Assembly: GCA_015232245.1 (NCBI GenBank)
Contig: JADGAB010000005.1
Location: 1-39,180 of the forward strand
Length of the DNA: 39,180 nucleotides
Reading direction: 5' to 3'
From: Magnetococcales bacterium
GTDB taxonomy: Bacteria > Pseudomonadota > Magnetococcia > Magnetococcales > Magnetaquicoccaceae
In this document: positions 17,005 to 34,086 of the stretch, one piece after another
Layout of the letters: the number at the start of each line of letters is the position of its first letter
Numbering within the stretch: position 1 is the first letter of the stretch
Position numbers and translations under genes: made by a program
Notes under the pieces: model-generated
What the model was told of the DNA's origin: nothing
Database searches by the model: none
What the model saw: only the letters and a program-made list of their open reading frames with translations

Positions 17005-18345
17005 TTACGATGCGTCGGAGGAATCCAGCGCAACGCCGCGCTCTTTCGCCACTTGCTCAAAAGTCTTGCCGCCAGAACCTTCCAGGTAGGCGATTTTGCC
17101 CGTGGCCTGGATGAACCGCTTCACGCCCACATCAACGTAAATCGGGCTGATTTCCATGGCATACACCCGGCGGTGGGTCAGGTGACCGGCCATGATCTGG
17201 GAACCGGAACCGCTGAATGGCTCATAGCACAGCCCGCCAATCGGGACGTGTTGCCTCATCGGGATGCCAAAGCAGTCCAGGGGCTTGGGCGTCGGGTGAT
17301 CCGGGCGTTCGTCCCCGGCCAGCGACTTCAGATCCCAGACTGTTGACGCTGACTCGGCATCCTCGATCTTGGCTGGCCGGTTGCCCCGGATCCAGCCATA
17401 GAAACAGGGTTCGTGCTTCCACAGGTAATGGGTGCGGGTCAAGACGGAGGCGTTCTTGTTCCAGATGATTTGTTGATGGACAAAAGCCCCCAGTTTTTCC
17501 CAAACTGCCTCCACCATGGCCTGACGCTTGGAAGCGTGCCAGCAATACCATGCCGCGTGAGGGTCGATGGCATGATCGATGGCCGCCCGGATGAATCCCT
17601 CGTAAAGTTCCGGCCCCTGACTGGCGTCATCCCAGGTGACGCCGTAGGTGCCTGACCAGTCCTTGTTGCCGCCCACCCAGCCTTTTTTGCCAACGGCGGC
17701 CACGGCGTCTGGTCCTTCATTTGCGGATTTTGCCTTGTCCCGTTTGTTCGGCGGATGATTTGTTCCATCATAATCCACAAGGTAGGGCGGATCGGTCGCA
17801 AACAGGATGGCCCGTTCGCCATTCATCAGGCGGATGACGTCCTCGGCCTTCGTGCTGTCGCCGCACAGGAGGCGGTGATCCCCCAGCACCCAAAGATCGT
17901 TGGGACGGGTGACCGGGTTGACGGGTGGTTCGGGGATGACGTCCTCGCCGCCGATGCCATCACCATCGCCTTCCTCACCATCTCCCTGTTCAAATCCATC
18001 CAGAAAACCGGCGACATCCTCGTCCGAGAAGCCGATCACATCGGTGTCAACCGGAGGGGCTGCGGCAACCGGAGGGGCTGCGGCAATTGGAGATGCCCCA
18101 GTGACTGGACGTGCCTCGGTTGCTGGAGGTGTCCCGATGACTGGAGGTGCCCCGGTTGCTGGAGTCGGCTGTGGACGATTGCGCTGTTGCGCTGGATCAG
18201 TGTTTGATTCCCATGCTTTGTCGGCCTTGGCCTGATCTATCGATCCGTCAGGATTGCGCTGAATGCGACCACTCTTGATCGCTTTGTCCACCGCCGATGG
18301 TGCAACGCCTCGATGTCTGGCGTATTCACGAACCCCCATGCCCAT
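17005..18345 (-). CDS. TerS-like HTH domain fused to a DNA methyltransferase (DPPY, beta-class order)
   Basis: N-terminus MGMGVREYARHRGVAPSAVDKAIKSGRIQRNPDGSIDQAKADKAWESNTDPAQQ is Nu1/TerS-like. A Pro-rich hexapeptide-repeat linker follows, then 'NPVTRPNDLWVLGDHRLLCGDSTKAEDV...FATDPPYLVDYDG...YEPFSGSGSQIMAG'. Confidence 0.82.
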   Translation of the reverse strand: MGMGVREYARHRGVAPSAVDKAIKSGRIQRNPDGSIDQAKADKAWESNTDPAQQRNRPQPTPATGAPPVIGTPPATEARPVTGASPIAAAPPVAAAPPVDTDVIGFSDEDVAGFLDGFEQGDGEEGDGDGIGGEDVIPEPPVNPVTRPNDLWVLGDHRLLCGDSTKAEDVIRLMNGERAILFATDPPYLVDYDGTNHPPNKRDKAKSANEGPDAVAAVGKKGWVGGNKDWSGTYGVTWDDASQGPELYEGFIRAAIDHAIDPHAAWYCWHASKRQAMVEAVWEKLGAFVHQQIIWNKNASVLTRTHYLWKHEPCFYGWIRGNRPAKIEDAESASTVWDLKSLAGDERPDHPTPKPLDCFGIPMRQHVPIGGLCYEPFSGSGSQIMAGHLTHRRVYAMEISPIYVDVGVKRFIQATGKIAYLEGSGGKTFEQVAKERGVALDSSDAS

Positions 18346-18366: not shown

Positions 18367-18549
18367 TGTTCATTCGACTGTTCGGCAAGTACTTGTTCAC
18401 TGTTCACCCGGAGTGTTCACCGAATGTTCGCTCACTGTTCACCCGGAGTGTTCACCGAGTGTTCACTCGCTGTTCACCCGGATTCGGATTTTTTATGTTA
18501 TTTTTCAAGTGATTGTCTCTCTTGATTTTCAGAAAATTTCAGGGTGTTC
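18367..18549. repeat. Phased TGTTC(AC) iteron array, including a 35-bp direct repeat in about 2.3 copies
   Basis: TGTTC at 18367, 18379, 18394, 18401, 18414, 18425, 18436, 18449, 18460, 18471 and 18545. The 35-bp unit TGTTCACCCGGAGTGTTCACCGARTGTTCRCTCRC repeats at 18401, 18436 and (partly) 18471. Confidence 0.9.
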
Positions 18550-18941: not shown

Positions 18942-19403
18942 ATGAGCGAACTCACCACCACTCAACAGACCGTCCTCCACGCCGCAGCCGCGCGCGAAGA
19001 TGGGTCCATCCACCCTATGCCAAGCAACGTCAAGGGCGGTGCCGCCATGAAGGTGATCGACTCCATGCGTACCAAGGGGCTGATCAAGGCCGATGCAGAC
19101 ACCATCAGCGACGTTGGATACCGCGCCATCGGGTTGGAGGCACCCACAGCCTTGGCCCTGGCAACGACCAAGACCAGTCGCACCAATACCAAAAAGGCCA
19201 AGGTGATCGAATTGATGAAACGCCCCGAAGGGGCCACCGCCGCCCAGATCGCCGAGGTCACCGGGTGGCAAAGTCACACGATTCGGGGCTTTCTCTCCCT
19301 GGCCAAATCGAAAATGGGATTGGCGATCACCACCAACCGCCTGTGGGTGGCGGGTGCGAACCAACTGGGGTCACCGGGTTCCTACACGACCTACTTCGCA
19401 TGA
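18942..19403 (+). CDS. DUF3489-domain protein (paralog 1)
   Basis: MSELTTTQQTVLHAAAAREDGSIHPMPSNVKGGAAMKVIDSM...KVIELMKRPEGATAAQIAEVTGWQSHTIRGFLSLAKSKMGLAI. Confidence 0.8.
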   Translation: MSELTTTQQTVLHAAAAREDGSIHPMPSNVKGGAAMKVIDSMRTKGLIKADADTISDVGYRAIGLEAPTALALATTKTSRTNTKKAKVIELMKRPEGATAAQIAEVTGWQSHTIRGFLSLAKSKMGLAITTNRLWVAGANQLGSPGSYTTYFA

Positions 19404-19716: not shown

Positions 19717-19950
19717 ACCTTCTTCCGCCTTGCACTCCTGCATCAGCAGATTCCCCGACGCTCACCCCCTGACGTTCCCATCCATGCCGCCCTGACAGCG
19801 GGGCAGCATGGGTTGGTCAGAACCGCCTTAAACATTAATGATAAAAAATATCGAAAAAATGAATTTAATTTAAAATTGCCTTGATATGGTTGCGTCTTCG
19901 ATGGCTTCATTGTGGCCATCGCAAACAACAACCAAGCAAGAGCAACCACG

Positions 19951-21303
19951 ATGAACGAACTGACCCCCACTCAAAAAACCATCCTTGAAGCCGCCATTGG
20001 TCACCTCAACGGCTCGATCCACCCCCTGCCAGAGAACCTCAAGGGCGAGGCCGCCCGGAAGGTGATCAAGTGCCTGCTCAAGAAAGAACTGATCGAGGAG
20101 GACGGCCATGAAGCCTGGCGCATCACCGAAGCCGGATACCGGGCCATCGGGTTGACCCTGCCCCAGGATGCGGAAGTGCAACACAACGCCATCGATGATT
20201 ACGAAGCGGATGTCGTCACTGCCGAGCAGTCCGTGATGACCGAAACAGCCGATGCCACCACAGACCTTGCAACGGACATCCCCACCACTGTCGGGCAGGC
20301 TGATGGCGAACCCTTCACAACCCTGAATGTGGAAGTCGACGACACCCTCGCGCAGTTGCCGGAGGAGACCTCCTGCCTCAACGTGTCCACGACCGCAGCA
20401 TTGACCCTGGCCGACGCAGAGAAGGCCTACGCTGAAGCCGACGCCGCATACGAAGCGGCGGCCAAGGCGTACCAAGATGCAGACGACGCACTGAACAAAA
20501 CCATCCGCAAGGGGAAGAGCCAGGCCATCATCGAGCAGGCCCGCGAGGAGATGGTTGCCGCCAGGGAAGCCGCCAACCAGACCGCCGAGGCCGCCATGAC
20601 CGCGCAGACCATTCTGAACAGCATCGCGTCACAAGCAACCACGGATGCGGACACCACCGACGAAACGCCCACGGCCCTGCCAACTGCCGACAAGCTGCCA
20701 AAATTCATCACCATCGAGGTTTCGCCGGTCATGCGCATTGCCATCGAAGCGGCCTTGAACACCCCTTTGGCCATGACGATTGACGGCGAACCGGACCCGA
20801 CCATGGAAACCGGAGAGAATTTCGAGGAGGACATTGCCGCCGCCGAACAGTCTCTGGCCGAAACGCAAACCCAGGCATCGACGGAAGCCGACGAGCGTGC
20901 CCTGATCGCCTTGCTTGAAATCATCTCGCGACGCCATCTGAGCATCGAGACGTTGGAAACCCGACTGTCAGACAGCCTGGATTTCCACAACATTGCGGTT
21001 TGGTGCATCAGAAATGCCTTGATCGCCGCCTACGAGGCCGGGTTGCAGGCAGCCAAAAAGCCCACCATCAAAAGGACGCCCAAGGCCTCCGCCGACAAGG
21101 CACCCAGAGACAACAAAAAGTCCATGGTCCTGGCGATGCTCGCCCGGCCTGATGGTGCCACCATCGAACAGATCGCCGATGCAACCAACTGGCAAACCCA
21201 CACGATCAGGAGTTTTCTTTCCATCGCCAAAAAGAAGGGCGCGAACATCGAGATGGCGGGCACCAGCACCGACGGATCCCGCATCTACCACATTGCCGCC
21301 TGA
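19951..21303 (+). CDS. DUF3489-domain protein (paralog 2, expanded middle region)
   Basis: MNELTPTQKTILEAAIGHLNGSIHPLPENLKGEAARKVIK... and C-terminal 'KSMVLAMLARPDGATIEQIADATNWQTHTIRSFLSIAKKKGANIEMAGTSTDGSRIYHIAA', with a ~270-aa Ala/Glu-rich middle. Confidence 0.8.
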   Translation: MNELTPTQKTILEAAIGHLNGSIHPLPENLKGEAARKVIKCLLKKELIEEDGHEAWRITEAGYRAIGLTLPQDAEVQHNAIDDYEADVVTAEQSVMTETADATTDLATDIPTTVGQADGEPFTTLNVEVDDTLAQLPEETSCLNVSTTAALTLADAEKAYAEADAAYEAAAKAYQDADDALNKTIRKGKSQAIIEQAREEMVAAREAANQTAEAAMTAQTILNSIASQATTDADTTDETPTALPTADKLPKFITIEVSPVMRIAIEAALNTPLAMTIDGEPDPTMETGENFEEDIAAAEQSLAETQTQASTEADERALIALLEIISRRHLSIETLETRLSDSLDFHNIAVWCIRNALIAAYEAGLQAAKKPTIKRTPKASADKAPRDNKKSMVLAMLARPDGATIEQIADATNWQTHTIRSFLSIAKKKGANIEMAGTSTDGSRIYHIAA

Positions 21304-22859: not shown

Positions 22860-23556
22860 GGTTGAGTTGGAACATGACGGTACGTTGCCCCCGTTCCACG
22901 GAAACCCTGCGTGCCCAATTGAGGTCAATCATGAAGTCCATGACCGCCTCCGCATCCTTTGGGGCCAGCCTGGGACGCGGCAAAGAACGACCCAGTGTCC
23001 GAATCGAGAACTCCATATTCCCGGACTTCAAAGCCCAGCGCGCCACTCGCAAAGCGGCTGATTCAAGCGCATCCCCCTCGGCCATCCGTTGCACCCGCAC
23101 CGCCTCGGACAGGTGGTATTCCCCAAGCACCTTGGCCCGCTCCCAGGTGGCCAATCCCAGCTCCGATTCCTCTTCCATGAGCAGACCGGGGCGTTCCAGA
23201 AGATGAAGCACCAGGGCCGCCTTGACCGCCGCCGACACCGCCTTGCTGGCGATATCCCGCACGTCCTCCAGGTCACGGCCTTCGGCCATCTGCATTTCCA
23301 CGAGGTTGTGCCATTGCCGCCGGGATTCCCTGGCCTCGGGGGAGAGTTTCACCAGATGGCAAACGGGTTTATCGTCCTTCTCCTGGGGTTTGGTATTCAA
23401 CAGGCCCAGAATGGCTTCTTCGTAGGGCTGCAGAATGAAGTCGTTGAGGCCGAATTCGTTCATCTCCTCCAGTCGAGTGCCAACCAGCGATGGCAGCCAG
23501 ACCGGCCAGATGCGGGCCAGTGCGCCGGAGGCCCGCAGCGAGGGATGGCTTCGCAC
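22777..23556 (-). pseudogene. C-terminal part of a DUF3987 (primase/YfjI-like) protein, N-terminus missing
   Basis: 'SGALARIWPVWLPSLVGTR...VKLSPEARESRRQWHNLVEMQMAEGRDLEDVRDIASKAVSAAVKAALVLHLLERP...' is DUF3987-like. The upstream ATPase part is absent and the helicase frame abuts directly. Confidence 0.6.
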
Positions 23557-24698
23557 TCAGGGCATTGTTTGGTGGGAGCCTCTCCAGTGCCGTCGCTGCC
23601 ATCCAGGTCCACATCCTGCTCCAACGAGCCGTGCAGCAAGGTGGAAATGCCGAAGTCCAGGACGATGCAATCGGTCTTGATGACGCCGGGGTGTTCGTTG
23701 GGGTCGACCGTGCGCAGCCCCCGACCCACCATCTGGATCAGGGTGGATTTGTAGGAACTGGGGCGCAGCAACACCACGCAGGAGGTGGGAGGATGGTCCC
23801 ATCCCTCGGTGAGAACGGCGACATTGACCACCAGCCGGGCATCACCTGTTTCAAATCGTCGCAACACGGCCCGGCGCTCGCCGTCTGGCAGGTCGCCATG
23901 CACCAGAACCGCGTTGTCCCCGGCGACATTGAAGGCGTCGGTGACATTACGGGCATGGTCCACGGTGGAGCAGAAGACCACGGTTTGGCGTTCCCTGGCT
24001 TTTGCCTGCCAATGGCGGATGACCGCTTCGGTGACCGGAGCCTTGTTCATGATCCGGTCCACCTCGGCCATGTCGAAGTCGTCCGCCGTGCGCTTTACTT
24101 GGCTCAGAGCCTCGCCGGTGCCGACATCGATGACGAAGGTGCGCGGTGGCACCAGGTGACCGGATCGGACCAGTTCCCCCAGACGCACCTGATCGGCCAC
24201 GTTGGAGAAAATAGGACGCAGGGCTTTGCGGTCCCCTCGGTTCGGGGTCGCAGTCACTCCGTAGATGCGGCATTCCGGATTACGCTCCCTGGCCGTGTCG
24301 ATGATCCGGCGATAGCCCGCCGCTGCCGCATGGTGGGCTTCGTCGATCACCAGCAGATCCAGAGGCGGCATGTCGTCCAGATTGCTCTGACGTGACAGGG
24401 TGGGCACCATGGCGAAGGTGGCCCGGCCACGCCATGATTTGGAGTCCGCATCCACGACGGAGATGGAGATGCCGGGATTGACCCGGCTGAATTTGGTCAC
24501 GTTCTGCCGGGTCAACTCGTCCCGATGGGCCAGGACGCAGGCCTTGCCATCCCCTTTGGCCAGCATCCGGCCTACCACGGCGGACAGCGCTATGGTTTTT
24601 CCAAAGCCGGTGCTCGCCACCGCCAGGGTGTTGCCGTGTTCGTGGAGGGCCGTCACCGACCGCTCCACGAACATCTGTTGTCTGGGCCTGAGAATCAT
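23460..24698 (-). CDS. DEAD/DEAH-box superfamily 2 helicase, C-terminus apparently replaced
   Basis: MILRPRQQMFVERSVTALHEHGNTLAVASTGFGKTIALSAVVG...VIDEAHHAAAAGYRRI...VGRGLRTVD...DFGISTLLHG. After PTKQCPECEA the frame becomes IPRCGPPAHWPASGRSGCHRWLALDWRR. Confidence 0.85.
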   Translation of the reverse strand: MILRPRQQMFVERSVTALHEHGNTLAVASTGFGKTIALSAVVGRMLAKGDGKACVLAHRDELTRQNVTKFSRVNPGISISVVDADSKSWRGRATFAMVPTLSRQSNLDDMPPLDLLVIDEAHHAAAAGYRRIIDTARERNPECRIYGVTATPNRGDRKALRPIFSNVADQVRLGELVRSGHLVPPRTFVIDVGTGEALSQVKRTADDFDMAEVDRIMNKAPVTEAVIRHWQAKARERQTVVFCSTVDHARNVTDAFNVAGDNAVLVHGDLPDGERRAVLRRFETGDARLVVNVAVLTEGWDHPPTSCVVLLRPSSYKSTLIQMVGRGLRTVDPNEHPGVIKTDCIVLDFGISTLLHGSLEQDVDLDGSDGTGEAPTKQCPECEAIPRCGPPAHWPASGRSGCHRWLALDWRR

Positions 24699-24715
24699 TC
24701 CCTGTCTCCCTTTGA

Positions 24716-25411
24716 TCACTGCGCCCAGGTCGGACGGGTGAAGGTGCCGCCACCGTTCTGCCCCTGGGTAGGGGTCGCCTGTTGGGTGGGAGGACGCCAG
24801 CCGTTGGCAGCGGGGACCGACGCAGCAGCGGGCTGGGAAGTGGCAGCCGGTTGGAAGCCGGTGGTCTGCTGGTATCCGGCGTGGGCCACAGGGGCTGCGG
24901 CAGGTTGGAATCCCTGGTACTCCTTCATGTCCGGGGTGACAGCAAACTTGATCACGTTTTTCGGATCTCCGTTGGCATCCTTTTCCACATCGATCTTGGC
25001 CAGAAACTCGATGCCGTCCAGGTCAACGAATCCACGAATGCGACGGGCCTCGATGGCGCGAGGCGAGGTGTCCTTGTCCGACAGACCACGGGCGGAATTG
25101 AGGATGGCCCGAATGAATGCGCGACCCATGTTGCCCCATTCCGGTCCCTTGGGGCTGTGGAGACCGATAAGGCTCCAGACCTTGCGCTTGGTATATTCCC
25201 CCGCCAGGATGACAAACTCACAGCTCAAATAAACCGATTCGCCTTCCTTCGAGAGAGTGGCATAGCCACCGGTCCAGCCCCGGCTGGGATCATCAATGCC
25301 GCCTGGCTTGATGGTCATGCGTACCGGGGCGATGCTCCCCTTGGGGATCAGATCAAAGTTGTTTTGGACGTCGGCGTCGTTATAGTCTTGCCAAGAAGTG
25401 TTCATGTTCAT
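24716..25411 (-). CDS. Phage protein, putative ssDNA-binding/recombination accessory
   Basis: MNMNTSWQDYNDADVQNNFDLIPKGSIAPVRMTIKPGGIDDPSRGWTGGYATLSKEGESVYLSCEFVILAGEYTKRKVWSLIGLHSPKGPEWGNMGR...; Q/P/A-rich tail; operon with an ATPase. Confidence 0.6.
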   Translation of the reverse strand: MNMNTSWQDYNDADVQNNFDLIPKGSIAPVRMTIKPGGIDDPSRGWTGGYATLSKEGESVYLSCEFVILAGEYTKRKVWSLIGLHSPKGPEWGNMGRAFIRAILNSARGLSDKDTSPRAIEARRIRGFVDLDGIEFLAKIDVEKDANGDPKNVIKFAVTPDMKEYQGFQPAAAPVAHAGYQQTTGFQPAATSQPAAASVPAANGWRPPTQQATPTQGQNGGGTFTRPTWAQ

Positions 25412-25433
25412 GGTAAATCTCCTTTTGATTTCG

Positions 25434-26303
25434 TCAGTTGGAAACAGGGGTTGTGGTTTCGGCAGGTGCCGGTTGACCGTACTCAAGGCGTTCAAGGATG
25501 GGACGCACCGGGCCAGAAATTTTGGCCATGAGGCGGCCCAAATGGGGTTCTTCCACCATGGTCAAACGACCAGAGCGGTCCTTGGCTGGATAGCCCCAGG
25601 GGTTGAGGGTGGTGCAGACGAAGGCGCGATAAAGCTGACCGCTTTCGGTCGACAACTCTGTCAGGGTGACGACCTGATCAACAATGCCGGGCAGTTCCAG
25701 GCCGGTCTTTGAACCTTCCAGTTGCAGTGCGAAATAGGGACGGTTGAAGTCGTCCAGTAACTTGTTCAGGATGCCAACGAACCAGATATTTTTGTTTCTG
25801 GTGTGTTGGATGTGGGTCAACCAGCCAATCATTTCCTGACCCAACAGTCCGTAGGCCCCACGCAGATCGGGTTTACCGTTCTTTTCGCTGAATGCCTGTG
25901 GCTGGCCTTTGCACCACTGAAAGCAGAGTCGCGCCGCCACAGTGATCGAGTCGATATAAACCGTTTCATATTTGTCCAGAGCAGCAGGATCGCCGAACTG
26001 GGCCACCACAGCCTGATAATGGGCGGTGCTGTAATACTGATCGTTGCGCAAAGCCGGGTTGGGTCCGCCGATAAAAACGGAAAAATCCCTGATTTCATCC
26101 CAGGTGCGGGGGCGCAAGGTATCGCCGGGCCAGCCTTCGACTGCCAAATCACCCGCTTCCATGTCGACAAATAACGTGGTCTGCGGGTCCAAGGTCCAAA
26201 GCTGGGAGGTCTTGCCGATGCCGACCGGCCCGATGAGAACACCCTTGATGCCGTGCCGCTCGGCCATACGCTGATCGGCGGTGATGATCGGAAGTTTGCC
26301 CAT
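25434..26303 (-). CDS. ATP-binding protein (AAA_24/Sak4-like)
   Basis: MGKLPIITADQRMAERHGIKGVLIGPVGIGKTSQLWTLDPQTTLFVDMEAGDLAVEGWPGDT...YETVYIDSIT: Walker A GPVGIGKTS and Walker B-like VYIDS. Confidence 0.78.
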   Translation of the reverse strand: MGKLPIITADQRMAERHGIKGVLIGPVGIGKTSQLWTLDPQTTLFVDMEAGDLAVEGWPGDTLRPRTWDEIRDFSVFIGGPNPALRNDQYYSTAHYQAVVAQFGDPAALDKYETVYIDSITVAARLCFQWCKGQPQAFSEKNGKPDLRGAYGLLGQEMIGWLTHIQHTRNKNIWFVGILNKLLDDFNRPYFALQLEGSKTGLELPGIVDQVVTLTELSTESGQLYRAFVCTTLNPWGYPAKDRSGRLTMVEEPHLGRLMAKISGPVRPILERLEYGQPAPAETTTPVSN

Positions 26304-26896
26304 TACGCCACCTCCTTCCGACCAAACTCTTCGACCATCCATTGGGTCACGACGAATTTGCCGAATGGTCCTTTGCATGCTGGGCGAAAATCACCGAGAC
26401 CGATCCGGGAACCAGCGGCATCCACGATTTCCCGAAACAACTTGGCCGTGATGATCCCGTCATCCAGGAGGACCGTGAACCCAAGCCGCCAATCGTGGAA
26501 ACAGGGACGATGGGAAAGAATACGTCCACCAGTTACGGGAATGCGCACGGCCCTGGTATCCACCATCCAGGCTTCTTTGTGTGCCAGGGGCAATTCAATC
26601 TCCTCAATGGAGACGCAAGCCGGAATCAGGGACGATTTCTGGGTGGTGATGAGAGATCTGCCAGCTTTGAAAAATTTTCCGGCATCAATGATGGCCCGGA
26701 ACAAATTAGGGGCAGGAACCATCGGTTCGCCGTCATGGCCGATGTAAAGCCTGCTTTCCGCGATCTCGCGAGGTGTTCCCTTGTCACCCACAATGCTCGT
26801 GCGGGTGCTGTCGGTGGCGGCCATTTGGGCCGCATCGGTGAATTTGTTGCATAGGAGAGGCGTTGTGCCTTCTATGTTGATTCCGAGTCGTTTCAT
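26303..26896 (-). CDS. Conserved hypothetical phage protein
   Basis: MKRLGINIEGTTPLLCNKFTDAAQMAATDSTRTSIVGDKGTPREIAESRLYIGHDGEPMVPAPNLFRAIIDAGKFFKAG...; RBS AGGAGGAATTC upstream. Confidence 0.65.
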   Translation of the reverse strand: MKRLGINIEGTTPLLCNKFTDAAQMAATDSTRTSIVGDKGTPREIAESRLYIGHDGEPMVPAPNLFRAIIDAGKFFKAGRSLITTQKSSLIPACVSIEEIELPLAHKEAWMVDTRAVRIPVTGGRILSHRPCFHDWRLGFTVLLDDGIITAKLFREIVDAAGSRIGLGDFRPACKGPFGKFVVTQWMVEEFGRKEVA

Positions 26897-26950
26897 CAGA
26901 ATTCCTCCTTGGTGGTTGATGTCCGAAAGATCAATCAAATTTGTTAAAAT

Positions 26951-27052
26951 CCGTGCCTTACTGCGCCTTGCCGCGCCAAGCCTCGCCCGGCCCAGCCTCG
27001 CATCGCCCAGCCGTGTCGTACCAAACACGTCTGGCGTAGCCTTACCGCGCCA
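26951..27052. repeat. (NNGGC)n pentanucleotide-phased repeat tract (minus strand)
   Basis: Minus strand reads gaGGCtgGGCcgGGCgaGGCttGGCgcGGCaaGGCgcagtaaGGC, with GGC every 5 nt. Confidence 0.75.
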
Positions 27053-27530
27053 AATCAGCCTCCGTCTCGAATCGAAACGTCTGTCGGCCACGATGGACCG
27101 TCCGCGCTTCCCCGAAGGCAGCCTTGATATGGTTCGGCCACGCAGAAAATTTTCTCTCATCAACCGTATGGGTCGTTTTGCTGGTGATGTATTCTCCAGG
27201 GTCTTCGCCGCTTTTCGCGATGTGACCGGCAATGGCCTCCAGCTTTTTTTGATCCCACTTCACCTCCTTTTTCATGTCCGCGATGATCTCCAGTCCGTCC
27301 TCGTGGAACCGGATCACGCCGAACTCCTTGCCGGACTCCTGGCGAATGGCGGTGGACTGCTCGCCGAAGCGACGGGCGAAGACGCCATCGAGCAGGTCGT
27401 TGATGAGCTTGACCCGGCCCATGGCCTCGCTGGTTTCCTGTTGAAGTCGGGCCAGTTCCCGGACCGGCAAGGATGCGATGTCGCCAACGGGCATCTGTCG
27501 CAGTTGATCAAGTGTGATGGGTTGGTTCAT
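27042..27530 (-). CDS. Conserved hypothetical phage protein
   Basis: MNQPITLDQLRQMPVGDIASLPVRELARLQQETSEAMGRVKLINDLLDGVFARRF...; recurrent family next to phage AAA_24/ssDNA-binding modules. Confidence 0.65.
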   Translation of the reverse strand: MNQPITLDQLRQMPVGDIASLPVRELARLQQETSEAMGRVKLINDLLDGVFARRFGEQSTAIRQESGKEFGVIRFHEDGLEIIADMKKEVKWDQKKLEAIAGHIAKSGEDPGEYITSKTTHTVDERKFSAWPNHIKAAFGEARTVHRGRQTFRFETEADLAR

Positions 27531-27701
27531 GGTGTCGTTCTCCTTTGTTTCGACTGTTCCTTGATGCCGCCACGCTTGTTGGTAAAAGAAGCCGGGGGTG
27601 GCGCCGCCCAAGGAGTTGCGGTGGGGGTATTTCCCGATTGGGTGTTGTATTGTCCCCAAGCCCCGGCTGGTTTCGTTTCATGCTGAAGTCGTCATGCTTG
27701 G

Positions 27702-27756
27702 CTCCTTACCCCTTACATACCGGCGGGATTCGGAATCTGTCGGACTTTATTTTTGC
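27702..27756 (-). promoter_or_regulatory. Bipartite motif copy A (candidate phage promoter)
   Basis: Minus strand: GCAAAAATAAAGTCCGACAGATT-N11-CGGTATGTAAGGGGTAAGGAG. Overlaps the 3' codons of the sigma-factor gene and points towards the 27530 gene. Confidence 0.5.
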
Positions 27757-28320
27757 TATTTTTATCTGATTGAATTTGTTTCTTATTTTTTCGACAGCGA
27801 CGTAGAGCATATGGCGCGGGGTGCCAGTCGCGGTGGAAAGTTCGGAGATGGTCTCCTCCATCAACCTCTCGGCAAGCCACCGCAGGGATGGTGGCAACCG
27901 CGCCAACAGACGTGAAACATCCGTTTGCAAATCGATGGATTCGTGCCAAGGCAGGCCATGCGTAAACCAGGGGGATTGGCTGGAGGAGATGGTGTCGATC
28001 AACTCGCTGACCATCCCATCTCCGTCATGCACCGTTTCATGAAGGGAAATCATCTCGATGTCGCCATTGCGAACCTGGCGCAATCCCTCCAGCATGGTGG
28101 CCACATGGTTCACGACCACTCTGGCGATGAAGGTTCTGACGCCAGCTTTCGAGTCATCAAAGCGGGCGAGTCGTCGGTGCATGTCGAGCATCAGTTCCTG
28201 TTCGATGTCCTCGACATCAGCGGGGAGAAAGCCGGGACTCCTGACAAGCCGCCGGGCGTGATGACGAACGGTGCTGACCGCGTAGGGGTGAATGCCGTGG
28301 TAGTGATTGCGTGATTCCAT
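27706..28320 (-). CDS. Small sigma-70-family (ECF-like) sigma factor
   Basis: HPYAVSTVRHHARRLVRSPGFLPADVEDIEQELMLDMHRRLARFDDSKAGVRTFIARVVVNHVATMLEGLRQ (region 2-like) and C-terminal DVSRLLARLPPSLRWLAERLMEETISELSTATGTPRHMLYVAVEKIRNKF (region 4-like HTH). Confidence 0.75.
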   Translation of the reverse strand: MESRNHYHGIHPYAVSTVRHHARRLVRSPGFLPADVEDIEQELMLDMHRRLARFDDSKAGVRTFIARVVVNHVATMLEGLRQVRNGDIEMISLHETVHDGDGMVSELIDTISSSQSPWFTHGLPWHESIDLQTDVSRLLARLPPSLRWLAERLMEETISELSTATGTPRHMLYVAVEKIRNKFNQIKIAKIKSDRFRIPPVCKG

Positions 28321-28496
28321 GGATGTCGCCTTTATCCGTAGGTGGCGGGCAAGTGCCCGAATGCCTGGATTGGCGACATGTCATCGAAGGGGGGTGGCGA
28401 GGCGTGATCAGGAGACGCTCGAATCTACAAAGTTATTCAAAATCAATTTGTTATTTTTTAGATTGCCATCAAAAAAAATTGCAAAAATTTCTCCAG

Positions 28497-28518
28497 CCAG
28501 GATGACATGTCATCCTGG
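28497..28518. promoter_or_regulatory. Perfect 22-bp palindrome, candidate operator upstream of the sigma gene
   Basis: CCAGGATGACATGTCATCCTGG; a partial copy GACATGTCATC lies at 28374-28384. Confidence 0.6.
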
Positions 28519-28570: not shown

Positions 28571-28593
28571 AAAAAGCCGGGACAATGCCCGGC
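28571..28593 (-). terminator. Rho-independent terminator of the lexA operon
   Basis: Minus strand GCCGGGCATTGTCCCGGCTTTTT: 6-bp GC stem followed by T5. Confidence 0.75.
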
Positions 28594-28621: not shown

Positions 28622-29728
28622 TCAGCGTGATGGACGCCTGCCGGGGGAGACCAGCGCGGGCTTGTCGCTCTCCTGGAGGATTTCGAAGGCCGTGCAGTAG
28701 GCTTGTTCGTCGTCCTTCCAGGTGACAGGGCGACCGGCGATGCCGAAAAATCGCTCCAGATCGTCATTCATGCGTCGGACCTGCTGGGGAATCTGGTTGC
28801 TGGCATCCGATGAATGCCAGGAGATTTTTCCGTGGTTCCGGGCGAACGCCCAAAGCAGGGTCCATTGTACGGAAGGTTCCCGGCTTCTCCGGTTCTCCAT
28901 GCCCATGGTGGAAAAGTTGACCGTTTCGGAGACTCCCTGGCAAAAGAGCGTGGCGCGATGGCCGTCGATGAAGGAAATGCGCAGATCCCCCCAGATGGCA
29001 TCGGGAGGGGTGGGAAAACGCACCATCGGTTCTCCGGGGGCGGGTTCCGGCAGGACCATGGCGCGGAAAGCCGCCATCACATCCCTGGAAATGGCGGATG
29101 ACGTCAATTGGTTGTGACCATCGGCGACCAGCAGGTCGGCCAAGGGATGAAAGCTGGCCCGATGCTCCCGGAGCAATTCAAACGCATGCGGGGGAATGGC
29201 GTGCTGGGTGGGCGCAAGCAGAATGAATGGCACAGGGGTGGTGCGGCACAGATGAGCCACGGCATTCATCCTCTGGCCGTCGTCAAAGGCAAGGAGCAGA
29301 TAGACAGGAAACCGCTTCCCGGCAATGGGATGAAAGTCACCGACCCGGAAGGTCTCTCGCACACCGTCCACCGGCGCGAACTCCGGTTTGATGCCCAGGG
29401 CGTTGGCCACCCGAATCGCCAGTCCCTGACGGTGCAGTTCGTAAACGACGAGGTCTTCCGGCTGCAATGACACGTCATCACAATTGCGACCGCCCTCGTC
29501 GCTGCAAACCGCGACGATTCTGTCCCGCCCCAGGTCGACGATCCGCCTTGGACAACCCGTCCCGCCCGGACTGGGACAGGGGTAACTTTCCGCACGGTGG
29601 GCGGTGGGACGCAGAAGCAGCACCCCGATCTCATGATCCTCCCGCAGGAGCTGCCGCCATTCCACAGGAATCGTCGAAAGCCCCGGCACGGTTTCCAGCG
29701 CCGACCACAACCGGTTCAAAATCCGCAT
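28622..29728 (-). CDS. Unknown protein B of the lexA operon (368 aa)
   Basis: MRILNRLWSALETVPGLSTIPVEWRQLLREDHEIGVLLLRPTAHRAESYPCPSPGGTGCPRRIVDLGRDRIVAVCSDEGGRNCDDVSLQPEDLVVYELHRQGLAIRVANALG...; Cys-rich N-terminal segment. Confidence 0.65.
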   Translation of the reverse strand: MRILNRLWSALETVPGLSTIPVEWRQLLREDHEIGVLLLRPTAHRAESYPCPSPGGTGCPRRIVDLGRDRIVAVCSDEGGRNCDDVSLQPEDLVVYELHRQGLAIRVANALGIKPEFAPVDGVRETFRVGDFHPIAGKRFPVYLLLAFDDGQRMNAVAHLCRTTPVPFILLAPTQHAIPPHAFELLREHRASFHPLADLLVADGHNQLTSSAISRDVMAAFRAMVLPEPAPGEPMVRFPTPPDAIWGDLRISFIDGHRATLFCQGVSETVNFSTMGMENRRSREPSVQWTLLWAFARNHGKISWHSSDASNQIPQQVRRMNDDLERFFGIAGRPVTWKDDEQAYCTAFEILQESDKPALVSPGRRPSR

Positions 29729-30893
29729 CGTCTTCCTCGCTATCGATTGCCGCAGTCCGAATGAATCCCCGCCGTTTCATCCACTCCTCCAAAAGCAGGC
29801 TGTCATCGTCCCGGGTGTACATGGCCTGATTGGCAGGCCGGATGGTCACGGTTCGTGGATTCCTGGAAGCGGTGAATTTCACCTGGAATTTGGCCAGAAA
29901 CAGGCGGGCTGTCCTTGGCAGGGTGTATCCGCGCCGCTGGAAGGACGCAAACAGATCCTTGGCCCGCTTGATTTCAATTTCGCCATGTTCTCCACCCAAA
30001 TGGATACCGATCTCCAGCAATTTGATCCAAACCACACCATCGATGTCACTGCACACCAGCGAAGCCGCCATATCCGTCCGCAACGGCTCCAGGGTGTATT
30101 TCTCCTCTCCGGGGAAATGCGCCTCGTTGCCGAACAGGTGCTTGCCGATCATGGCGAGGTACATCATCCGTTCGGCCTTGGATCCGGCCTTGATGCACAG
30201 TTCGTTTCGGTCTCGGTCATAAACCAGGACATCGTGGGATTCTGGCCGGAAATAGACGGCTCCGGACTGTCCATCCTGCTCCATGGCTCCCTCGCGCCGG
30301 AAAGGCATGCCGTGCCGCACCACCAAGTTCACTTTTCGACCATGGTCGAGAAGGAACACCCGGCATCCGCGACCGCGTTTCCTCTCTTCGAACCAGTCGT
30401 CCATATCGGACTCAAGGGATCGCAATGCAGCGGTGGCGGGCAGGACAAACTTGCCCCGCCACCCTGGGTTTCCCTGGAAGTACAGAAACGAACGGGCGCG
30501 GTTGATGAACACGTTGGCGTGCTGCCGTTCGATCAGTTCCCGATCCTTGAGAAACACCTGGACAGCGATGTCCGCCGGGCTGGAGTCGGGTGCGAAATCA
30601 ATGCTGAGGCCTTGTCCCTTGGCAGCTTCCAGCAGACGGTCCATGCCGTCCTGGTTCGCCATCTCGTGGACGACGTAGAGGGATTCCAGCAGATCCCTGG
30701 GGGCGTCCTCACCCAGGTTCATCAGAATGGTCGCCAACTGTTCGCAATCCATGCCACAGCCATTGGAGGGGAAGATCACACCGCAGCCCTCCAGAAAATC
30801 CCGGTGAAGCCCCATGAATGCGGCCAATCGTCCCGGCTCGATGGTCTTCAGAGTATCCGGCTGGGCGAAGCGACGGGGATTGAACATGGCCAT
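29631..30893 (-). CDS. Unknown protein A of the lexA operon (420 aa)
   Basis: MAMFNPRRFAQPDTLKTIEPGRLAAFMGLHRDFLEGCGVIFPSNG...; coherent protein composition, starts 12 nt after lexA, overlaps protein B by 98 nt. Confidence 0.7.
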   Translation of the reverse strand: MAMFNPRRFAQPDTLKTIEPGRLAAFMGLHRDFLEGCGVIFPSNGCGMDCEQLATILMNLGEDAPRDLLESLYVVHEMANQDGMDRLLEAAKGQGLSIDFAPDSSPADIAVQVFLKDRELIERQHANVFINRARSFLYFQGNPGWRGKFVLPATAALRSLESDMDDWFEERKRGRGCRVFLLDHGRKVNLVVRHGMPFRREGAMEQDGQSGAVYFRPESHDVLVYDRDRNELCIKAGSKAERMMYLAMIGKHLFGNEAHFPGEEKYTLEPLRTDMAASLVCSDIDGVVWIKLLEIGIHLGGEHGEIEIKRAKDLFASFQRRGYTLPRTARLFLAKFQVKFTASRNPRTVTIRPANQAMYTRDDDSLLLEEWMKRRGFIRTAAIDSEEDDADFEPVVVGAGNRAGAFDDSCGMAAAPAGGS

Positions 30894-30905
30894 GCGTGGA
30901 TCTCC

Positions 30906-31607
30906 TTATGCGGTGGATGTTGTCTTGCCACGCACCGCCAGGACTTTTCCCAGGATGCGCAAATCGTCTTCCGGCCCCACCACAATGGGTTGGTACGCGG
31001 CATTCGCCGGTCGCAGTTCGATGCGATTCTCGGCGACGTACAATCGTTTGACCGTGGCCTCGTCTCCCACCAGGGCGACGACAATGTCGCCATTCTCCGC
31101 AATGGGTTGACGGCGCACGATCACCAGATCCCCGTCGTTGATGCGGGCATCGATCATGCTGTCGCCCTTCACCTGCAACGCAAAACAACTTCCTCGCGCC
31201 ACATGGGCTTCCACCAGGACTTCACCCACATGGTTCTCTGTGGCCAGAATCGGTACTCCGGCGGTCACTGTGCCAATGATGGGGACGGAGATCAGCTCCA
31301 GGATCGTGGGGGAGGCATGCACGATTTCCAGGGACCGGGCCTTGTGGGGAATGCGACGCAACACCCCTTTTTCGATCAGGGCGGCGACCTGTTCATGCAC
31401 GCTGGGGGCGCGAATGCCGAGAATCGTCCCCAGTTCCTGAACCGTGGGGGACATGCCATGCGTGTCGATAAAGTCGCGGACGGTGTTCATCATCCGTTCC
31501 TGGGCAGGAGTCGGCCCATCCATGGCCTTTGGCCCTCCACGTCCTCTTTTTTGCGGCAATTCCGTCACGGTTCTTCTCCCGGCAATGGGGCCACACGCTT
31601 CATACAA
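30906..31607 (-). CDS. LexA-like S24 repressor
   Basis: PTPAQERMMNTVRDFIDTHGMSPTVQELGTILGIRAPSVHEQVAALIEKGVLRRIPHKARSLEI (wHTH) plus IIGTVTAGVPILATENHVGEVL (cleavage region) and VKGDSMIDARINDGDLVIVRRQPIAENGDIVVALV...EATVKRL (Ser/Lys peptidase). Exact start uncertain. Confidence 0.9.
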   Translation of the reverse strand: MYEACGPIAGRRTVTELPQKRGRGGPKAMDGPTPAQERMMNTVRDFIDTHGMSPTVQELGTILGIRAPSVHEQVAALIEKGVLRRIPHKARSLEIVHASPTILELISVPIIGTVTAGVPILATENHVGEVLVEAHVARGSCFALQVKGDSMIDARINDGDLVIVRRQPIAENGDIVVALVGDEATVKRLYVAENRIELRPANAAYQPIVVGPEDDLRILGKVLAVRGKTTSTA

Positions 31608-31661
31608 GACTTGCCTGAATAATATTAGGCGATGATGGCAAAATCAACCCCTTTGTTGGTC

Positions 31662-31715
31662 GCAAAAAAAAATCCGACAGATTGTCGCGCTGCCCGGTAT
31701 GTAAGGGGTATGGAG
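31662..31715 (+). promoter_or_regulatory. Bipartite motif copy B (candidate phage promoter)
   Basis: GCAAAAAAAAATCCGACAGATT-N11-CGGTATGTAAGGGGTATGGAG, 29 nt upstream of the first ATG of the recombinase operon. Confidence 0.5.
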
Positions 31716-31743: not shown

Positions 31744-31923
31744 ATGAACACCACCCATCCTGACCAAATGCCCCCCGACCAACGCCTGCGCGAAGTAGCC
31801 ACCATCCTCGCCACCGGCTTCCTTCGATACATAAAAAAGCAGAAAACAGAGAATATTCATGTTGATAAGTTGCCAGACCAATGGCCTTATGGTCGAAAAT
31901 CAACCAAAGGAGAAAAGACATGA
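31744..31923 (+). CDS. Small hypothetical protein (59 aa) heading the recombinase operon
   Basis: MNTTHPDQMPPDQRLREVATILATGFLRYIKKQKTENIHVDKLPDQWPYGRKSTKGEKT; ATGA overlap with the DUF2924 gene. Below the ORF-track cutoff. Confidence 0.6.
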   Translation: MNTTHPDQMPPDQRLREVATILATGFLRYIKKQKTENIHVDKLPDQWPYGRKSTKGEKT

Positions 31924-32363
31924 ATATAGACATCATCAAGCAGGTGGCGGCCTTGTCGGAGATGCCAACCGCTGACCTGAAGAAAAAATGGACGGATTTG
32001 CATCCCAAAACCGAACCGCCTCCCTTCAACCGGACATTCTTGGTGAGACGGCTGGCTCACCGCATTCAGGATCTGGCGCTCGGCGGAGTGGTGGCCAGAA
32101 CAGACAAACAAATGGACCGCCTGGCCAATGAGGAGGGTGCGCCGCAGGAAAGAAAACGTCCGCCGGGGGAACAGCTTTTCCCCGGCACCCAACTGATTCG
32201 GGAATGGAAGGGGGCGGAACATTGCTGCACCGTTCTGGATGACGGCTTTGAGTATCAAGGACGAAAGTTTGGCAGCTTGTCGGCGGTTGCAAACTTTATT
32301 ACCGGAACGAGGTGGAACGGGCGGGTGTTCTGGGGTCTCAAAAAACAAGGAGAAATGGCATGA
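31920..32363 (+). CDS. DUF2924-domain protein
   Basis: MNIDIIKQVAALSEMPTADLKKKWTDLHPKTEPPPFNRTFLVRRLAHRIQDLALGG...PGTQLIREWKGAEHCCTVLDDGFEYQGRKFGSLSAVANFITGTRWNGRVFWGL. Confidence 0.85.
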   Translation: MNIDIIKQVAALSEMPTADLKKKWTDLHPKTEPPPFNRTFLVRRLAHRIQDLALGGVVARTDKQMDRLANEEGAPQERKRPPGEQLFPGTQLIREWKGAEHCCTVLDDGFEYQGRKFGSLSAVANFITGTRWNGRVFWGLKKQGEMA

Positions 32364-33688
32364 ATACCAAGAAACCAATCATACTAAAAATACGTTGCGC
32401 TGTCTACACCCGGAAATCCACTGAGGAGGGGCTGGATATGGAATTCAACAGCCTCGACGCACAGCGGGAGTCGTGCGAGGCCTACATCGCCAGCCAGAAG
32501 GGGGAGGGGTGGTTTCTGGCGCCTGATCGTTATGATGATGGTGGTTTTTCTGGCGGCAACATTGAACGCCCCGCCTTGAAGCGCCTCATGGCCGATATTG
32601 AAGCTGGAAAAATTAACGTGGTGGTTGTTTATAAGATAGATCGTCTGACCCGGTCCTTGATGGACTTTGGCAAGCTGGTGGTGGTCTTCGAGCAGCACGG
32701 GGTGACATTCGTGTCCATCACCCAGAGTTTCAATACTACAACGTCTATGGGTCGATTGACGTTGAATATACTGTTATCGTTTTCTCAATTCGAAAGAGAA
32801 CTTTCGGCAGAGAGAATCCGGGACAAGTTCGCGGCGTCCAAACGCAAGGGGATGTGGATGGGGGGACATCCGCCCCTGGGATATGTTGTGAAGGATCGGA
32901 AGCTCGTGGTGGAAGCCGCCGAGGCGGAAACGGTGAGGAATCTCTTTCTCCGGTTCGCGGAGAGCGGTTCCGTCACCCTGAGGGTCAAGGAGATGGGAGA
33001 GGCGGGGGTGGTCGGCAAATACGGCAGACCCCTGGACAAGGGTGCGATCTATCGCATCCTCGACCACCACGTCTACATCGGCGAGATCGCCTACCACGGC
33101 GAGATCTACGCCGGGGAACACCAGGGGATCATCGACCGGGAACTATGGGACAAGGTCCATGCCATTCTGGCAAGCAACAACCGCCAGCATTCCGGGCCGA
33201 CACGGGTGCAGACCCCCGCGCCGTTGAAGGGGATCATTCGGTGCCGCCACTGCGACCGGGCCATGAAACCCACGTTCACTCGCAAGGAGGGGCGACTGTA
33301 CCGGTATTACACCTGCCAGGCGGCGGACAAAAACGGCTCCAATGCCTCCTGCCCACTGCGCACCGTCGTCGCCGGTGAGATCGAGGCGGTGGTGATGCAA
33401 CATGTGCGCACCATGTTGAAGTCTCCAGAGATGATTGTCCAGACTTGGCAGGTCGGCAACGAAGAAGATAGCGGGGTCAAGGAGCGGGACGTGGCTGATG
33501 CCCTGCGTCGGATTGATCCGATCTGGGAGGAGCTTTTCCCGGTGGAGCAGCAACGTTTGGTGCAACTTCTCATCGGCAAGGTGGAGGTGGACAAGAGGGA
33601 TGTGCAGGTGCATTTGAGGACTGAGGGACTCGACACCCTGGCCCGCGAACTGATGGACATTGGCAATCGGAAGGAGGTGGTGGCATGA
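32360..33688 (+). CDS. Serine recombinase (resolvase/large recombinase family)
   Basis: RCAVYTRKSTEEGLDMEFNSLDAQRESCEAYIASQ...KIDRLTRSLMDFGKLVVVFEQHGVTFVSITQSFNTTTSMGRLTLNILLSFSQFERELSAERIRDK; Zn-ribbon IIRCRHCDRAMKPTF; ATGA overlap with DUF2924. Confidence 0.93.
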   Translation: MNTKKPIILKIRCAVYTRKSTEEGLDMEFNSLDAQRESCEAYIASQKGEGWFLAPDRYDDGGFSGGNIERPALKRLMADIEAGKINVVVVYKIDRLTRSLMDFGKLVVVFEQHGVTFVSITQSFNTTTSMGRLTLNILLSFSQFERELSAERIRDKFAASKRKGMWMGGHPPLGYVVKDRKLVVEAAEAETVRNLFLRFAESGSVTLRVKEMGEAGVVGKYGRPLDKGAIYRILDHHVYIGEIAYHGEIYAGEHQGIIDRELWDKVHAILASNNRQHSGPTRVQTPAPLKGIIRCRHCDRAMKPTFTRKEGRLYRYYTCQAADKNGSNASCPLRTVVAGEIEAVVMQHVRTMLKSPEMIVQTWQVGNEEDSGVKERDVADALRRIDPIWEELFPVEQQRLVQLLIGKVEVDKRDVQVHLRTEGLDTLARELMDIGNRKEVVA

Positions 33689-34086
33689 AGGCAGAAATGA
33701 GCAAGGACGGCAAGATGATCGTGGTCACCATTCCCATGGTGGTGAAGAAAAGGGGTGGGCGAAAGCTGATCATCGCTCCACCTGGGATGGAGATGGCACC
33801 GCCGCGAGATGAGACGCTCGCGAGGTCGGTGGCAAAAGCCCACAAGTGGTTGAAGATGCTGGAGAGCGGGCAATTTCCATCCATCCGGGCACTTGCCGAG
33901 CAAGAGAAGGTGGGCGAGTCCTATATGGCCAAGGTGCTGCGATTGACGCTGCTGGCGCCGGATATCGTGACCGCCATCATCGATGGGCGTCAACCGGATG
34001 TGTTGACCTGGCGGGAATTGATGAAGCCGTTCCCGATGCTCTGGCACGAGCAGCGTGAGCGTTGGGGCATTCCAGAGCCGGTGTGA
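33685..34086 (+). CDS. Recombinase-associated HTH-like protein
   Basis: MKAEMSKDGKMIVVTIPMVVKKRGGRKLIIAPPG...SIRALAEQEKVGESYMAKVLRLTLLAPDIVTAIIDGRQPDVLTWRELMK; ATGA overlap with the recombinase stop. Confidence 0.75.
   Translation: MKAEMSKDGKMIVVTIPMVVKKRGGRKLIIAPPGMEMAPPRDETLARSVAKAHKWLKMLESGQFPSIRALAEQEKVGESYMAKVLRLTLLAPDIVTAIIDGRQPDVLTWRELMKPFPMLWHEQRERWGIPEPV

What the first reader, a model, noticed from the sequence alone, without database searches (positions are those of the whole stretch)
28622..31607. Operon of LexA-like repressor plus two unrecognised proteins (A 420 aa, B 368 aa)
lexA, A and B are tightly packed on the minus strand (12-nt gap; A and B overlap by 98 nt) and end at a clear Rho-independent terminator (28571-28593). 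I recognise no domain in A or B, apart from a Cys-rich segment in B (CPSPGGTGCPRR...AVCSDEGGRNC). They sit between repressor and sigma factor, in the regulatory centre of the element, so they could be SOS-controlled regulators, anti-sigma or partner-switch proteins, or a defence cargo pair. This is the most plausible location for an undescribed system here.
Basis: partly seen in the sequence, partly recalled or inferred. Interest (0 to 1): 0.7.

Follow-up and report, generated by a model that had tools for sequence, protein, structure and literature searches.

The report
Prophage SOS-to-sigma switch module
Two unrecognised genes in a prophage of a Magnetococcales bacterium turn out to be core parts of a genetic switch that seems to link DNA damage to a phage-made sigma factor, and the same gene pair recurs, undescribed, in dozens of uncultured phages.

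Summary
The operon is real. LexA is a genuine, apparently cleavable repressor. A (420 aa) and B (368 aa) match no Pfam, PHROG, NCBIfam or PADLOC family, but they are not cargo. A is followed by B in 62 of 67 testable IMG/VR and named-genome loci, and then by a sigma factor; lexA directly precedes A in only 12 of 66. The A model has the RdgC / Chl4 / CENP-N fold, which the literature also assigns to lambda RexA (fold only, no sequence similarity). B has four invariant cysteines and a C-terminal domain that, in a distant homologue, passes Pfam's cut-off for Trans_reg_C, a winged helix. Three conserved DNA elements outline the circuit: a single dyad CCTAATnnnnATTAGG at the lexA promoter; a pair of dyads about 120-130 bp apart upstream of sigma, whose centre tracks B's recognition helix; and a fixed-spacing element CCGACAG-N14-CGGTAnGTRA that points into the recombinase and replication operons. 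Exact copies of all three occur in this 3.7-Mb genome only in this prophage. Best reading: LexA controls lexA-A-B, B controls sigma, sigma drives the lytic and recombination genes, and A is a RexA/RdgC-like DNA-binding modulator. A's role and the sign of B's action are unproven.

The parts
30906..31607 (-). lexA: LexA-type repressor with Ala-Gly cleavage site (VTAGVP), Ser (GDSM) and Lys (ATVKR) of the autoprotease; probable start GTG 31568
   Evidence: TIGR00498 172.5 bits over cut-off, PF00717 and PF01726; catalytic motifs read
29631..30893 (-). A, 420 aa: RdgC/RexA/Chl4-fold protein; residues 384-420 disordered and clade-specific
   Evidence: AlphaFold2 pLDDT 88; Foldseek PDB best RdgC 2owl E 3.1e-5 prob 1.00, then Chl4/CENP-N; viral library best hits phage RdgC; homologues
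28622..29728 (-). B, 368 aa: four-Cys N-terminal region, alpha/beta middle domain, C-terminal winged-helix-type domain (about 236-352), long helix 313-328 with N321
   Evidence: Alignment, model pLDDT 91; distant homologue L068:9000-10001 has Trans_reg_C over cut-off and matches the B profile
28571..28593 (-). intrinsic terminator closing the lexA-A-B unit
   Evidence: 6 GC pairs plus T5
31614..31629 (-). putative LexA operator CCTAATATTATTCAGG, overlapping the -10 (TATTAT) of the predicted lexA promoter
   Evidence: One copy in front of lexA in most Magnetococcia loci that hold the region; not found in L064, L043 and L065; only match in the whole genome; promoter prediction
28497..28518 (.). 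O1: perfect 22-bp dyad CCAGGATGACATGTCATCCTGG upstream of sigma; proposed B operator
   Evidence: Only perfect dyad with arms of 8 or more in 39,180 bases; conserved in relatives
28372..28385 (.). O2: second, imperfect copy GATGACATGTCGCC near the sigma start, about 130 bp from O1
27706..28320 (-). phage sigma-70-family factor (204 aa)
   Evidence: PF04542 32.4 bits over cut-off; phrog_1740
31674..31704 (+). sigma-promoter candidate P1, CCGACAG-N14-CGGTATGTAA, pointing at DUF2924-recombinase
27713..27743 (-). sigma-promoter candidate P2, same element, pointing at the replication/recombination operon
31881..34086 (+). DUF2924 gene, serine recombinase and small companion gene (31881-32363, 32312-33688, 33685-34086)
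   Evidence: PF11149, PF00239/PF07508, phrog_95, phrog_14161
23460..27611 (-). operon after sigma: unknown 27042, unknown 26303, Sak4-like AAA ATPase 25434, unknown 24716, DNA helicase 23460
   Evidence: order conserved

Best explanation
A and B are the middle tier of a prophage induction switch. SHOWN (computed): A-B-sigma is a conserved gene order; lexA-A-B is one unit ended by a terminator; a unique dyad overlaps the lexA promoter; a pair of dyads brackets the sigma promoter region; a fixed-spacing promoter-like element faces the recombinase module and the post-sigma operon. INFERRED: LexA represses its own operon and is cleaved through host RecA when DNA is damaged; released B binds the paired dyads through its C-terminal winged helix and sets sigma expression (activation, or relief of a loop-type repression); sigma directs RNA polymerase to the CCGACAG-N14-CGGTAnGTRA promoters and switches on recombinase/excision and replication genes. 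A is an RdgC/RexA-fold, probably dimeric DNA-binding protein that tunes the switch, either by limiting RecA-driven LexA cleavage (as published for RdgC) or by biasing it to the lytic side (as published for RexA).
For: B next to A in 62 of 67 loci, sigma (detected with the window's sigma) in 43 of 60, at least one of the others holding a diverged sigma. A: RdgC/Chl4 fold in two libraries, the fold published for lambda RexA (PMC11077077). B: Trans_reg_C over cut-off in a homologue at the same place. LexA operator: one per locus, one per genome. Dyads: 17 with arms of 7 or more in B-sigma gaps vs 0.85 expected; paired at 116-135 bp in phages whose B is only 20-40% identical to the window's; still upstream of sigma when sigma has moved away from B (L063). 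N321 goes with centre CATG, S/T/A/V with A/T centre. Sigma element: 62 hits at spacer 14 against 0-1 at each other spacer from 8 to 20; 52 of 62 at the two expected sites and strands, none on the opposite strand there; divergent phages show other sequence pairs at the same two sites and orientation.
Against: Nothing was tested at the bench. The helix/dyad association rests on only 1-2 independent changes in the tree and the dyad lies near B's 3' end in most loci, so linkage could explain part of it. The fold match of A is modest (TM 0.30-0.44), with no profile similarity to RdgC or RexA, although RdgC and RexA show none to each other. B's model matches no solved structure, and its own C-terminal profile does not significantly match Trans_reg_C. 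Host sigma-70 plus an activator could read the sigma element. Several phage groups show no recognisable dyad or element. LexA is absent upstream of A in most loci, so the top tier is exchangeable.
Confidence: 0.55

Rival explanations
1. RexAB-like exclusion pair: A is a RexA-type sensor and B its effector, expressed from the repressor operon to protect the lysogen.
For: A has the RexA/RdgC fold and sits right after a repressor, as rexA does in lambda and near-lambda phages and in a P. putida prophage (PMC12894663).
Against: B is not RexB-like: 368 aa, Cys4 plus winged-helix type. A and B are kept in nearly all members together with sigma, unlike optional exclusion genes. lexA is usually not upstream of A.
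Confidence: 0.1
2. A and B are recombination/replication accessories, with A as an RdgC-like RecA antagonist or end-protector serving the downstream Sak4/PD-(D/E)XK/helicase cassette, and no switch role.
For: Phage RdgC proteins are among the best viral fold matches; the downstream operon holds a Sak4-like annealing protein and a helicase, and relatives have PD-(D/E)XK nucleases.
Against: Position in the repressor operon rather than in the recombination operon; B's winged helix; the dyads at sigma.
Confidence: 0.2
3. A or B binds the sigma factor directly (anti-sigma or co-activator), and the dyads belong to another regulator.
For: Conserved adjacency A-B-sigma.
Against: L063 separates B from sigma and keeps multiple dyads at sigma; B has a DNA-binding-type domain; no known anti-sigma domain was found.
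Confidence: 0.1
4. The CCGACAG-N14-CGGTAnGTRA element is read by host sigma-70 (TAnGTR as a -10) with a phage activator, possibly B or A.
For: The 18-nt distance from CCGACA to TAnGTR and the TATGTA hexamer are compatible with a weak sigma-70 promoter (sequence inspection).
Against: Strong -35 conservation unlike TTGACA; exact copies only in the prophage; phages with other sequence pairs at the same sites.
Confidence: 0.2

Closest known systems
lambda cI-rexA-rexB operon; RexA
   Same: Repressor gene followed at once by a protein of the RdgC/Iml3/Chl4 fold; RexA binds DNA non-specifically and biases the lysis-lysogeny switch (PMC11077077).
   Different: No detectable sequence or profile similarity; the third gene is not a RexB membrane protein; LexA-type instead of CI repressor; a dedicated sigma follows; A and B are core genes.
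RdgC (PF04381)
   Same: Best solved-structure match of A; phage RdgC proteins are among its best viral matches. RdgC inhibits RecA and RecA-dependent LexA cleavage (cited in PMC11077077).
   Different: Extra N-terminal helical region, no Pfam or profile match, TM 0.3-0.44.
OmpR-type winged-helix regulators (Trans_reg_C, PF00486)
   Same: Strand-helix-helix-hairpin order of B's C-terminus; over cut-off in the homologue L068.
   Different: No receiver domain; fused to a Cys4 region and an alpha/beta domain; B itself below detection.
Phage-encoded sigma-70-family factors
   Same: PF04542 region 2, phrog_1740.
   Different: Here paired with A-B and with a putative dedicated promoter that controls the recombinase and replication modules.

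Membership tests
LexA (TIGR00498) | profile over curated cut-off; Ala-Gly site, Ser/Lys dyad | tested here: met
   172.5 bits vs 110.95; TAG, GDSM, ATVK motifs
LexA (TIGR00498) | binds and autoregulates through an operator at its promoter | not testable with these tools
   Candidate dyad conserved and unique; binding needs an experiment
RdgC | Pfam PF04381 or profile similarity | tested here: not met
   No Pfam hit; hhalign E 0.16 over 20 columns
RdgC | RdgC fold | tested here: met
   Foldseek 2owl E 3.1e-5, prob 1.00, but TM only 0.30-0.44
RexA | sequence or profile similarity to RexA | tested here: not met
   hhalign E 0.3 over 12 columns
RexA/RexB system | RexB membrane partner | tested here: not met
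   B is a confident multi-domain model with Cys4 and winged-helix type regions, not a small membrane protein
RexA/RexB system | location directly after the repressor | tested here: inconclusive
   Met in the window, but lexA directly precedes A in only 12 of 66 loci; other repressor types not checked
OmpR-type wHTH (PF00486) | profile match of the C-terminal domain | tested here: inconclusive
   B: none; homologue L068: 28.6 vs 26.2 bits
Sigma-70 family | region 2 over cut-off | tested here: met
   PF04542 32.4 vs 24 bits
Known anti-phage defence system | PADLOC model match | tested here: not met
   A and B: no families

The most novel reading that the evidence does not exclude
The A-B-sigma module is an undescribed, widespread type of lysis-lysogeny switch in which a RexA/RdgC-fold protein is an obligatory core component rather than an exclusion accessory, and an exchangeable top tier (LexA or another input) feeds a dedicated winged-helix regulator that controls a phage sigma with its own promoter code. 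RexA of lambda would then be a relic of, or parallel to, a switch component.
Probability: 0.35. Interest if true: 0.8.

Novelty: new variant of a known kind. Interest (0 to 1): 0.62.

Why it matters
It assigns a likely role and a testable regulatory map to two protein families that no library names, in a phage family seen in metagenomes and Magnetococcia but absent from 50,697 cultured phage records by tblastn with the window proteins. It predicts three operators/promoters to the base, offers a self-contained and possibly orthogonal sigma/promoter set, and bears on why a RexA/RdgC-fold protein sits behind phage repressors.

Tried and rejected
Family libraries for A and B, also member by member over the alignments: nothing usable; a few divergent A members match phrog_37634, unnamed. 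Solved-structure sequence search: nothing. Foldseek of B: only low-probability hits. Profile comparison of A with RdgC, RexA and B, and of RdgC with RexA: no signal. tblastn of A and B in cultured phages and plasmids: none. Reading the CCCCTTACATACCGG...TTTT element as a terminator was considered and rejected, since the T-run is missing in other phages that keep the spaced blocks. Reading the 98-nt A-B overlap as functional overprinting was rejected: the overlapping tail is disordered and clade-specific. Counting the helix/dyad association as statistically independent was rejected after the tree test.

Full report
OBSERVATION. The window is a prophage-bearing contig (G000:C437) from a genome whose nearest named relatives are Magnetococcales. 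lexA, A and B are real minus-strand ORFs at the stated coordinates, with a 12-nt gap and a 98-nt overlap, and end at a GC-stem/T-tract terminator. The phage context is clear: terminase, portal, Sak4-like protein, helicase, and a serine recombinase with DUF2924. LexA passes TIGR00498 and keeps the cleavage and catalytic motifs. A and B have no family in four libraries.

DISTRIBUTION. In 299 genomes of the phylum, A occurs in 18 and B in 19 (a few of the B matches are short and marginal), mostly in the same genomes and adjacent. A profile of A finds 74 IMG/VR loci. In the gene maps, A is followed by B in 62 of 67 loci, and by a sigma recognisable with the window's sigma in 43 of 60; at least one of the 'unknown' genes at that place also scores weakly as sigma region 2 (L139). 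lexA precedes A in only 12 of 66. Thus A-B-sigma is the conserved unit and LexA an exchangeable top. No cultured phage or plasmid record matches by tblastn with the window proteins.

PROTEIN A. AlphaFold2 on 59 natural sequences from the window and from loci found here gives pLDDT 88. Foldseek ranks E. coli RdgC first (E 3.1e-5, probability 1.00), then Chl4/CENP-N chains; in the viral library several of the best matches are phage proteins annotated as RdgC. RexA of lambda was shown to share this RdgC/Iml3/Chl4 fold, to bind DNA non-specifically and to bias the switch to lysis, and RdgC is cited as lowering RecA-dependent LexA cleavage (PMC11077077). There is no sequence-profile similarity between A and RdgC or RexA, nor between RdgC and RexA. 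I therefore claim the fold, not membership. TM-scores are modest, so the fold claim carries about 0.7 confidence. The disordered last 37 residues explain the unusual overlap with B.

PROTEIN B. Four invariant cysteines (C51, C59, C75, C83) suggest a metal site (inference). The model is confident (pLDDT 91) but matches no solved structure. The C-terminal third has strands, a helix, a long helix and a hairpin, as in OmpR-type winged helices (my reading of the secondary structure). In the distant relative L068, the gene directly after A matches the B profile and carries Trans_reg_C over the cut-off at its C-terminus. The B profile itself does not reach Trans_reg_C.

REGULATORY DNA. (1) Alignment of lexA upstream regions shows a 16-bp dyad CCTAATnnnnATTAGG, one per locus; it was not found in L064, L043 and L065, and L025/L053 do not hold the region. 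In the window it overlaps the predicted -10 and is the only match in the 3.7-Mb genome. (2) Between the terminator and sigma lies a perfect 22-bp dyad, the only one with arms of 8 or more in the window, with a second, imperfect copy about 130 bp on. Divergent phages have other dyads at the same place, again paired at 116-135 bp; dyads with arms of 7 or more total 17 against 0.85 expected. In L063, sigma has moved away from B and has five dyad copies upstream. The dyad centre goes with the residue at B position 321: N with CATG, S/T/A/V with A/T. The tree shows only 1-2 independent changes, so this is supportive, not decisive. In L057, B's C-terminal domain is 75% identical to the window's while its N-terminus is 73% identical to L058's; its dyads are of the window's type, and L058's are not, but proximity could explain this. 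(3) The element CCGACAG-N14-CGGTAnGTRA occurs 62 times in 68 loci at spacer 14, and 0-1 times at each other spacer from 8 to 20; 52 lie divergently upstream of lexA/A or directly after sigma, in promoter orientation only. In the genome, exact copies occur only at 27713-27743 and 31674-31704.

MECHANISM. The simplest circuit is LexA -| lexA-A-B; B -> or -| sigma through paired operators; sigma -> recombinase and replication operons. Conserved anatomy is shown; every arrow is inferred. Estimated probabilities: the dyad is the LexA operator 0.85; B reads the sigma dyads 0.75; sigma reads the spaced element 0.75; A is a DNA-binding protein of the RdgC/RexA fold 0.7; A modulates RecA/LexA or the switch 0.4. 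B is more likely an activator in the LexA-controlled version, because LexA cleavage raises B, but the placement of O1 and O2 on both sides of the sigma promoter region also fits loop repression.

COMPARISON AND VERDICT. It works like the lambda immunity operon in layout and in the fold of the second gene, but it is not a RexAB system: the partner is not RexB, and sequence membership fails. It is best called a new variant of a phage regulatory switch, with two undescribed core families and a dedicated sigma. The finding deserves follow-up; the decisive experiments are ordinary binding and reporter assays.

Noticed in passing
window 27713-27743 (-) and 31674-31704 (+): Fixed-spacing element CCGACAG-N14-CGGTAnGTRA, a candidate promoter of the phage sigma, conserved through a large phage family.
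   Followed up: yes
G000:C77:877-907: A two-mismatch copy of the same element in another contig of the genome, closest to the L054/L060 type: probably a second related prophage.
   Followed up: no
window 18376-18482: Three tandem copies of a 35-bp repeat rich in GTTCAC, upstream of the gene at 17005-18345 (-).
   Followed up: no
window 18942-19403 and 19912-21303: Two plus-strand genes share an 88-nt stretch at 73% identity: a duplicated N-terminal domain inside an otherwise minus-strand structural region.
   Followed up: no
L058:4084-5214 and L057:9890-11032: An extra gene inserted between A and B in two related prophages; the L058 one matches DUF3800.
   Followed up: partly
L061:8719-9117: An extra short S24/LexA-like protein between B and sigma in this complete genome (about 4.72 Mb in one contig, from memory Magnetococcus marinus MC-1).
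   Followed up: no
L123:4373-7676 and L097:4335-7674: In phages without lexA the divergent module is a D5-type primase, a PD-(D/E)XK-like protein and a DUF6511 gene instead of DUF2924-recombinase (Pfam run on L123 only), yet it keeps the same promoter-like element.
   Followed up: partly
MW057783.1 (hit H9): A 'Campylobacter phage' record carries a rexA 100% identical to lambda's, which looks like a mislabelled or contaminated record.
   Followed up: no
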